A stretch of 64,000 nt of DNA from Ianthella basta. Lineage: Eukaryota; Porifera; Demospongiae; Verongiida; Ianthellidae. Numbering within the stretch: position 1 is the stretch's first letter; every line of letters starts with the position of its first letter. Positions 15,192 through 39,760 of the stretch are shown here, piece by piece. Both the position numbers and the translations under genes were made by a program. The stretch spans positions 2,561,879 through 2,625,878 of the forward strand of contig OZ025877.1 of the NCBI GenBank assembly GCA_964019415.1, given 5' to 3'. The notes below the pieces were generated by a model. That model worked only from the letters and a program-made list of their open reading frames with translations, was not told the DNA's origin and did no database searches.

Positions 15192-15303
15192 ATGAACCAG
15201 AGCCAAGAAATTGGAACTGCAGCTGGTTACAAGTTACGCGGGGAACAGGCTTTGGAAGCTACGTACACGGCTCTGGGAAACGCTGTGGCTGATGTGGCTG
15301 ACA
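15192..15303 (+). CDS. Candidate first exon of gene B
   Basis: ATG at 15192 opens 37 codons ending at GACA|GTAAGT in phase 1. The C-terminal part (RGEQALEATYTALGNAVADVAD) is helical and would form helix 1 of a death fold completed by either 171-nt exon at 21507 or 21820. The upstream sequence is CpG-containing. Support is only phase and helix logic. Confidence 0.35.

Positions 15304-39760: not shown

What the first reader, a model, noticed from the sequence alone, without database searches (positions are those of the whole stretch)
15192..39760. A single phase-1 modular locus joining Roc-COR, pseudo-Roc-COR, Death, ZU5 and CARD-like domains
Nineteen exons on one strand join in phase, nearly all at phase 1, and encode death-fold, GTPase, ZU5 and linker modules. 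Known Roc proteins (LRRK, DAPK1 and MFHAS1 types) and ZU5-death proteins (PIDD, UNC5) do not, to my knowledge, combine Roc-COR with ZU5 and several CARD-like domains. If transcribed as one unit this could be an undescribed death or immune scaffold. What is seen: motifs and phases. What is inferred: one transcript and its role.
Basis: partly seen in the sequence, partly recalled or inferred. Interest (0 to 1): 0.85.

Follow-up and report, generated by a model that had tools for sequence, protein, structure and literature searches.

The report
Sponge tandem Roco death-fold scaffold gene
A stretch of an animal genome, very likely a sponge's, encodes a GTPase module, a conserved degenerate copy of that module, and cell-death adaptor domains laid out as exchangeable exon blocks; much of the described gene is real and part of a large family, but that all of it is read as one protein is likely rather than shown.

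Summary
The domains are real; the 5' third and the single transcript are not established. I can support 15 exons (21507-39576), all AG/GT, 14 of 14 joins in phase (10 at phase 1), 2343 aa, no stop: two helical-hairpin exons, Roc-COR, degenerate Roc-COR, linkers, Death, ZU5, UPA-like exons, two CARDs. The proposed start at 15192 is repeat DNA. In the same genome 19 of 21 close Roc-COR exons have a degenerate Roc-COR downstream on the same strand, and one pair shares a 1482-aa frame, so this duplex is one protein; the degenerate half matches Roc-COR by profile (E 1e-17). ZU5-UPA-CARD is a separate, larger family: one of three C10 copies of the Roc unit lacks it, and a further C10 copy stands behind other domains. 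Yet 7 of 110 listed Roc-COR exons have ZU5 within 10 kb downstream, 0 upstream, 0 on the other strand. Best reading: one member of a large, exon-shuffled family of death-fold Roco genes. Roco with CARD and death domains is known (Trichoplax); the pseudo-GTPase duplex and ZU5-CARD tail I did not find in print (ten searches).

The parts
   Evidence: AG/GT, phase 1-1; 83% identical copy at the same place in the C21 paralogue; no credible PDB hit for its profile, best E 0.15; omega 0.89 over 53 codons
21820..21990 (+). hairpin repeat exon 2 (phase 1-1)
   Evidence: 48-51% identical to exon 1, 79% identical copy in C21, omega 0.48
23485..26253 (+). Roc-COR exon with intact GTPase motifs GPPHTGKT, DTGGQ, THLD and a Thr/Pro-rich insert between G1 and G3 (phase 1-1)
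   Evidence: Pfam Roc E 0.004, under cut-off; family profile hits only Roco structures, 18 of 18, around DTGGQ; omega 0.31 against C3 with dS above 1. COR is assigned through paralogues only
28988..30648 (+). degenerate Roc-COR (pseudo-GTPase) exon, phase 1-0: G1, G3 and G4 motifs lost
   Evidence: hhalign to Roc-COR from the G3 region on, prob 98.9, E 1e-17; 20 near-full-length copies with the window's own, none with stops; Pfam COR-A on 3 paralogous copies, under cut-off; omega 0.36 with dS above 1
31243..31282 (+). short linker exon lk1, phase 0-1
   Evidence: found by a scan for a 0-to-1 exon, one of ten candidates listed; 9 of 9 residues identical in the C21 copy, whose fetched stretch starts inside it
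31912..31977 (+). linker exon lk2, phase 1-1
   Evidence: splice sites kept and a 3-base, in-frame insertion in the C21 copy; 68% identical
32048..32377 (+). Death domain exon; the domain ends near 32322, the rest is retroelement-like DNA that supplies a substitute phase-1 donor
   Evidence: profile hits 13 of 13 death domains in PDB at E up to 1, best 0.0036; the C21 copy has a different 3' end; tail 81% identical to the end of the 26.7-27.8k retroelement piece
33227..33861 (+). ZU5 domain exon, phase 1-0
   Evidence: Pfam ZU5 E 0.0012-0.0015, 19.2-19.6 bits against cut-off 21; 7 of 7 members match, best 2.5e-6; omega 0.19-0.36
33957..34109 (+). UPA-like exon a, phase 0-0
   Evidence: follows ZU5 in 5 of 5 fetched paralogous loci and in L042
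34198..34408 (+). UPA-like exon b, phase 0-1
   Evidence: 55-100% identical in paralogues; omega 0.26-0.52
34555..34641 (+). small exon c, phase 1-1
   Evidence: 58-96% identical in C10b, C5b and C5a; no such match in C21a or L042
34920..35041 (+). small exon d, phase 1-0
   Evidence: 71-100% identical with open frame in C10b, C21a, C5b and L042; in C5a the match is split over three frames
35175..35229 (+). small exon e, phase 0-1
   Evidence: short matches in C10b, C5b, C21a and C5a, from residue 6 on
35586..35867 (+). CARD 1 exon, phase 1-1
   Evidence: profile's best PDB hits are CARD8, with CED-4 and NLRP1 further down among 16, some unrelated; Pfam CARD on 2 of 8 members, best 0.00029, not on this one; pLDDT 94 model with a split first helix
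39298..39576 (+). CARD 2 exon, phase 1-1
   Evidence: 46% identical to CARD 1; 80% identical copy in C10b; omega 0.67 against it
32387..32430 (+). (TG)n tract at the 5' border of the ZU5-UPA-CARD1 block
   Evidence: homology to L043 stops here
35876..35983 (+). (TG)n tract at the 3' border of the block
   Evidence: homology to L043 resumes here

Best explanation
This is one member of a large, lineage-specific family of death-fold Roco genes built from exchangeable, mostly phase-1 exon blocks. Core: Roc-COR GTPase and a conserved pseudo-GTPase Roc-COR (one protein, shown by a paralogue), with hairpin repeats before and linkers and a Death domain after (same order in a diverged copy). Tail (inferred to be in the same transcript): ZU5-UPA-CARD-CARD. 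Proposed working, inferred: the active Roc binds GTP and the COR regions of the duplex hold the protein in a regulated state, with the pseudo-Roc as a fixed structural partner in place of a second protomer; a trigger sensed by the N-terminal or linker parts changes that state, and the Death and CARD domains then nucleate partners, as in DAPK1 and in the ZU5-UPA-CARD tails of NLRP1/CARD8 (recalled). New combinations arise by recombination in introns, where (TG)n tracts border the ZU5-UPA-CARD1 block.
For: Both Roc-COR units in one 1482-aa frame in C3; 19 of 21 Roc-COR exons with a degenerate partner downstream within 40 kb (4 of 21 have one upstream, 0 on the other strand), 16 of 21 within 10 kb and 0 upstream at that range; 20 near-full-length degenerate copies, none with a stop; omega 0.36 for it and 0.31 for Roc-COR, with dS above 1; same order hairpin-hairpin-Roc-COR-degenerate-lk1-lk2-Death at C21. 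For the joined tail: 14 of 14 joins in phase; Roc to ZU5 within 10 kb downstream 7 of 110, upstream 0, opposite strand 0, mean of 2000 random placements 0.585, maximum 4; Roc-COR, CARD-like exon (by eye), ZU5, UPA, Death, CARD in 9.5 kb at C5; between the Roc-COR exon and CARD 1 the only + strand AATAAA lies inside the Death exon, at 32148. Domain assignments.
Against: No transcript, start exon or stop exon. A listed ZU5 near only 2 of 20 degenerate Roc-COR exons, both recent copies. The block is absent from copy C10:2784k and follows other domains at C10:2527k. The Death exon has lost its apparent ordinary donor to retroelement-like DNA. An AATAAA at 22067 follows hairpin exon 2 and an ATTAAA at 32785 lies between Death and ZU5. 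Omega is 1.22 for Death against C21 (0.62 against L043), 0.89 for hairpin 1, 0.67 for CARD 2 and 2.29 for CARD 1 against C10b, on few changes. COR is weakly supported; UPA and hairpin profiles find no credible relative in PDB, nor does the degenerate Roc-COR profile.
Confidence: 0.6

Rival explanations
1. Two neighbouring genes on one strand: a Roc-COR, pseudo-Roc-COR, Death gene ending near 32.4-32.8k, and a ZU5-UPA-CARD gene starting upstream of 33227 with a first exon not yet recognised.
Against: Roc to ZU5 order is orientation-specific in the lists; what is conserved just 5' of ZU5 in C5a, C21a and C5b is only about 65-85 bases of intron end, not a shared first exon; phases fit. At C5a a withheld stretch of about 5 kb upstream could hide a Roc exon.
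Confidence: 0.33
2. The window locus is a decaying hybrid (pseudogene) made by segmental duplication and retroelement insertion, while intact relatives elsewhere do the work.
For: Lost Death donor and retroelement tail; retroelement piece between the two Roc-COR exons; a fragmentary degenerate-Roc copy, with stops in 3 of its 4 rows, at C10:3088-3093k; raised omega for Death.
Against: All 15 exons open with AG/GT borders; ZU5 omega 0.19 against the 99% copy (few changes); the C10:2922k copy keeps Roc-COR, degenerate Roc-COR, Death, ZU5 and CARD 1 in order (coordinates).
Confidence: 0.2
3. The domain calls are chance resemblances in unrelated exons.
For: Window scores for Roc and ZU5 lie under Pfam cut-offs and Death and CARD 1 are not found by Pfam; PDB profile hits for Death and CARD are weak (best 0.0036 and 0.014).
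Against: Profiles from paralogues rank the right folds first in PDB or Pfam, the degenerate unit aligns with Roc-COR, and the CARD model has pLDDT 94.
Confidence: 0.03

Closest known systems
DAPK1 (Roc-COR with C-terminal death domain)
   Same: Roc-COR followed by a Death domain; PMC6337361 calls DAPK1 the Roco group with a death domain (12 of 23 places shown)
   Different: No kinase or ankyrin exon recognised here; Roc-COR is doubled with a degenerate copy; ZU5-UPA-CARD lies behind it
Trichoplax Roco genes with LRR, TPR, CARD and death domains (Civiero 2014, cited in PMC11378527, section 14 read)
   Same: Roc-COR surrounded by CARD and death domains in a non-bilaterian animal
   Different: No degenerate Roc-COR duplex or ZU5 is mentioned in that passage; the 2014 paper itself was not read
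NLRP1 and CARD8 (FIIND = ZU5-UPA, then CARD; recalled)
   Same: ZU5-UPA-CARD order; the CARD profile's best PDB matches are CARD8, and NLRP1 is among the 16
   Different: Roc-COR in the place of NACHT (NLRP1); no conserved self-cleavage motif recognised
PIDD1 and UNC5 (ZU5-UPA-Death; recalled)
   Same: ZU5-UPA next to a death-fold domain
   Different: Roc-COR added; CARD rather than Death follows ZU5-UPA in the window
NACHT-ZU5 genes of sponges and cnidarians (PMC12909245 and PMC8260672, passages read)
   Same: ZU5 paired with an NTPase in early animals
   Different: The NTPase is a STAND NACHT, not a Roc GTPase
Roco domains in TIR/TLR-like proteins of Aplysia (PMC9334734, passages read)
   Same: Roc-COR joined to an immune signalling domain in an invertebrate
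   Different: TIR instead of death-fold and ZU5; no duplex mentioned in the passages
Brown algal ROCO genes with exon shuffling (PMC11378527, abstract and section 14 read)
   Same: Roco expansion diversified by exon shuffling, proposed immune receptors
   Different: There LRR exons shuffle and 9-47 genes are counted; here death-fold and ZU5 blocks change partners and 110 Roc-COR places are listed (places, not genes)

Membership tests
Roco (Roc-COR) proteins | Roc GTPase with G1, G3 and G4 motifs | tested here: met
   GPPHTGKT, DTGGQ, THLD in the window; G1 and G3 kept in 4 of 4 aligned members, G4 in 3 of 4; 18 of 18 PDB hits Roco, over 32-44 positions around G3; Pfam Roc under cut-off
Roco (Roc-COR) proteins | COR directly after Roc | tested here: inconclusive
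   COR-B E 0.0008 and COR-A E 0.009 on two distant paralogues and COR-A on 3 degenerate paralogous exons, all under Pfam cut-offs; not found in the window exons
Pseudo-GTPase Roc-COR | Homology to Roc-COR without GTPase motifs, kept by selection | tested here: met
   hhalign E 1e-17 from the G3 region on, shallow alignments of 4 and 2 sequences; motifs absent by eye in 2 of 2 sequences; 20 open copies; omega 0.36 with dS 1.27; no PDB hit
Death domain | Profile match to solved death domains | tested here: met
   13 of 13 hits at E up to 1, best 0.0036; one of the five profile members is itself a weak Pfam Death match
CARD | Six-helix death fold with kinked helix 1 and CARD profile match | tested here: met
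   model pLDDT 94 with split first helix; CARD8 0.014; Pfam 0.00029 best, 2 of 8; fold search did not complete
ZU5 | Pfam ZU5 match | tested here: met
   7 of 7 members, best 2.5e-6; the window member itself 19.2-19.6 bits against cut-off 21; no credible PDB match
FIIND / UPA (NLRP1, CARD8, PIDD1) | UPA domain after ZU5 | tested here: inconclusive
   exons in the right place, exon b constrained, but no credible PDB match
FIIND / UPA (NLRP1, CARD8, PIDD1) | Self-cleavage motif (F-S with nearby His; recalled) | tested here: inconclusive
   TFS near the ZU5 end in the window, S in 4 of 7 members and T, not H, before F in 7 of 7; position not confirmed, single-sequence model failed
One transcript | cDNA joining Roc-COR to ZU5-CARD | not testable with these tools

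The most novel reading that the evidence does not exclude
A Roco counterpart of NLRP1: a GTP-switched Roc-COR with a built-in pseudo-GTPase twin drives a ZU5-UPA-CARD signalling tail, and the animal keeps over a hundred Roc-COR genes as a shuffled, germline-encoded receptor repertoire, with (TG)n tracts in module-border introns as exchange points.
Probability: 0.27. Interest if true: 0.82.

Novelty: new variant of a known kind. Interest (0 to 1): 0.6.

Why it matters
If right, an early-branching animal has built an expanded defence-like receptor family on Roco GTPases rather than on NACHT proteins, with a constrained pseudo-GTPase Roc-COR fused to the active one. That would give a natural, covalent Roc-COR heterodimer for testing how Roco proteins, LRRK2 included, use dimerisation, and a clear case of receptor diversification by exchange of exon blocks.

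Tried and rejected
Start at 15192 and the exons up to 21.5k: rejected as repeat and transposon DNA. Reading the small stretch 34995-35043 in the DLRQDD frame: rejected, two paralogues (C5a, C21a) have stops in it; the neighbouring frame is kept instead. Death acceptor at 32013 (phase 2): set aside for 32048 (phase 1); not settled. Hairpin exons as CARDs: not supported. ZU5 by PDB profile: nothing credible. ZU5 single-sequence model: pLDDT 32, unusable. Degenerate Roc-COR profile against PDB: no hit. Papers: ten searches; Roc-COR + ZU5 + death domain found none, Roco + ZU5 only PMC8195603; of it I saw 12 of 15 places and section 10, and none of these describes a Roc-ZU5 fusion. The library lacks most subscription papers, so absence there is weak.

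Full report
What was checked. The window lies at G000:C10:2561879-2625878 of a 209-Mb genome in 96 contigs.

Exons. Fifteen exons between 21507 and 39576 have AG/GT borders, and 14 of 14 joins are in phase, 10 of them at phase 1, giving 2343 aa without a stop. Inside ZU5-UPA several joins are phase 0. A first list did not join throughout; the linker lk1 was then searched for as a phase 0-to-1 exon, one of ten candidates, and exons d and e were re-framed, so the chain is partly selected. In support, 9 of 9 residues of lk1 are kept in the C21 copy and exon d keeps its frame in four of five other loci that match it. The next linker keeps its splice sites and shows an in-frame 3-base difference at C21. 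I found no first or last exon.

Domains. Roc-COR: under cut-off in Pfam for the window (E 0.004); the profile of four paralogues hits only LRRK2 and bacterial Roco structures, 18 of 18 at E 0.01 or better, but over just 32-44 positions around DTGGQ, so it speaks for Roc, not for COR. The motifs GPPHTGKT, DTGGQ and THLD are intact, with a Thr/Pro-rich insert. COR rests on weak Pfam matches of paralogues. Degenerate Roc-COR: profile comparison with Roc-COR gives probability 98.9, E 1e-17 over 454 columns from the G3 region on, with shallow alignments; the GTPase motifs are gone, by eye, in both sequences read; Pfam COR-A matches 3 of the 20 exons, under its cut-off; no PDB hit. Death: 13 of 13 PDB hits at E up to 1 are death domains, best CRADD at 0.0036; one of the five members, from C10b, is a weak Pfam Death match on its own (0.0017). 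CARD: best CARD8 at 0.014, with CED-4 and NLRP1 among 16 hits that also include unrelated proteins; Pfam CARD on 2 of 8 members; an AlphaFold model from the window's three CARD copies, one of them from 6.7k, has pLDDT 94 and a split first helix. ZU5: 7 of 7 members match Pfam, best 2.5e-6. UPA is inferred from position and constraint only.

The duplex is one protein. In the same genome the degenerate exon has 20 near-full-length copies, the window's included, none with stops, plus one broken copy. Of 21 close Roc-COR exons 19 have a degenerate exon within 40 kb downstream on the same strand (4 of 21 have one upstream at that range, 0 on the other strand); within 10 kb it is 16 down and 0 up. 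At C3 both lie in one 1482-aa frame. Omega against C3 is 0.31 and 0.36, with dS above 1, so the values are rough. At C21 the order hairpin, hairpin, Roc-COR, degenerate Roc-COR, lk1, lk2, Death is kept, at 60-84% protein identity for the domains.

The ZU5 tail is a movable block. The ZU5 exon has at least 150 relatives. In the five fetched loci ZU5 and UPA exons are found in 5 of 5 and a CARD 1 match in 2 of 5, a weaker CARD match at C5c and CARD-like exons by eye at C21a and C5b. Upstream the partners differ: hairpin exons (C5a, C21a, C5b), Roc-COR, Death and a Schlafen AlbA_2 exon (C10b), Roc-COR and a CARD-like exon (C5:313k). Withheld stretches of about 5 kb at C5a and C5b could hide further exons. 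In the C10:2784k copy of the Roc unit, window homology stops at the (TG)n tract after Death and resumes at the (TG)n tract after CARD 1, with about 2 kb of other DNA between. (TG)n tracts lie within 120 bases 3' of 11 of 41 exon ends against 0.91 expected: 5 of 5 Death, 2 of 4 CARD 1, 1 of 3 Roc-COR, the AlbA_2, one hairpin and one other CARD exon, and none after ZU5, UPA, degenerate Roc-COR or CARD 2. I picked the exon ends by hand after seeing the pattern, and many of these loci are related, so the count is not of independent events.

One transcript? For: phases; Roc-to-ZU5 within 10 kb downstream 7 of 110, 0 upstream, 0 on the other strand, against a mean of 0.585 and maximum of 4 in 2000 random placements, which ignore clustering, use approximate contig lengths and rest on capped lists (150 ZU5; 50 and 61 scored Roc candidates); 2 of the 10 ZU5 copies with a Roc within 20 kb upstream carry stops; the compact C5 locus, whose Death and CARD are known by likeness to the window's, not by Pfam; no AATAAA in the introns from the Roc-COR exon to CARD 1. 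Against: only 2 of 20 degenerate exons have a listed ZU5 near; block gain or loss among C10 copies; AATAAA at 22067 after hairpin exon 2 and ATTAAA at 32785; the Death exon's apparent ordinary donor is replaced by retroelement-like DNA, though a phase-1 GT follows. I put one transcript across Death and ZU5 at about 0.6.

Working. Shown: domain content as graded above, low omega for Roc-COR, degenerate Roc-COR, ZU5, UPA b and CARD 1 against C5, and change of block partners. Inferred: GTP-regulated duplex, death-fold output, defence role. Raised omega for Death (1.22 against C21, 0.62 against L043), CARD 1 (2.29) and CARD 2 (0.67) against C10b and hairpin 1 (0.89) could be relaxed or diversifying change; the counts are small.

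Place among known things. Roco with a death domain is DAPK1 (PMC6337361, passages). Roco with CARD and death domains is reported for Trichoplax, and brown algae with 9-47 genes are said to have more Roco genes than other organisms (PMC11378527, section 14). Here two searches with Roc-COR queries give 110 Roc-COR places, places and not genes. NACHT-ZU5 is known in sponges (PMC12909245, passage). I found no report of Roc with ZU5 or of a Roc-COR pseudo-GTPase duplex in the searches named under Tried and rejected.

Noticed in passing
genome G000: 110 Roc-COR exon places in one genome, against 9-47 Roco genes given for brown algae; 9 of 110 have a listed Death exon and 16 of 110 a listed CARD exon within 5 kb downstream, none upstream.
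   Followed up: partly
window 26290-26457, 32387-32430, 35876-35983; C10b, L042-L044: Sense-strand (TG)n tracts sit just 3' of several module-ending exons (11 of 41 hand-picked exon ends, 0.91 expected) and border the ZU5-UPA-CARD1 block.
   Followed up: partly
window 6709-9110, + strand: Another CARD exon, a helical exon and a further CARD-like exon upstream; a separate gene or the real 5' part of this one is open.
   Followed up: partly
L023:1331-2176 (C10:2525331-2526176): Schlafen AlbA_2 exon between Roc-COR/Death and ZU5 in the neighbouring copy.
   Followed up: partly
C18:5634361, C19:2780223, C22:692509, C34:94820, C9:471305: Very long single open frames (1763-2374 aa) with Roc or Death matches: candidates for fusions in one exon.
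   Followed up: no
window 42797-59404, - strand: Three tandem collagen-like genes with a cysteine-rich C-terminal part (by eye and self-match).
   Followed up: no
window 18898-19735 (-), 20632-21189 (+), 26706-27707 (+), 517-3397 (-): Tc5/DDE transposase, two reverse-transcriptase pieces and an LTR-retroelement-like stretch (by eye).
   Followed up: partly
window 32722-32763: Short stretch 97.6% identical to part of a ZU5 exon, out of frame by eye: remnant of another ZU5 copy.
   Followed up: no
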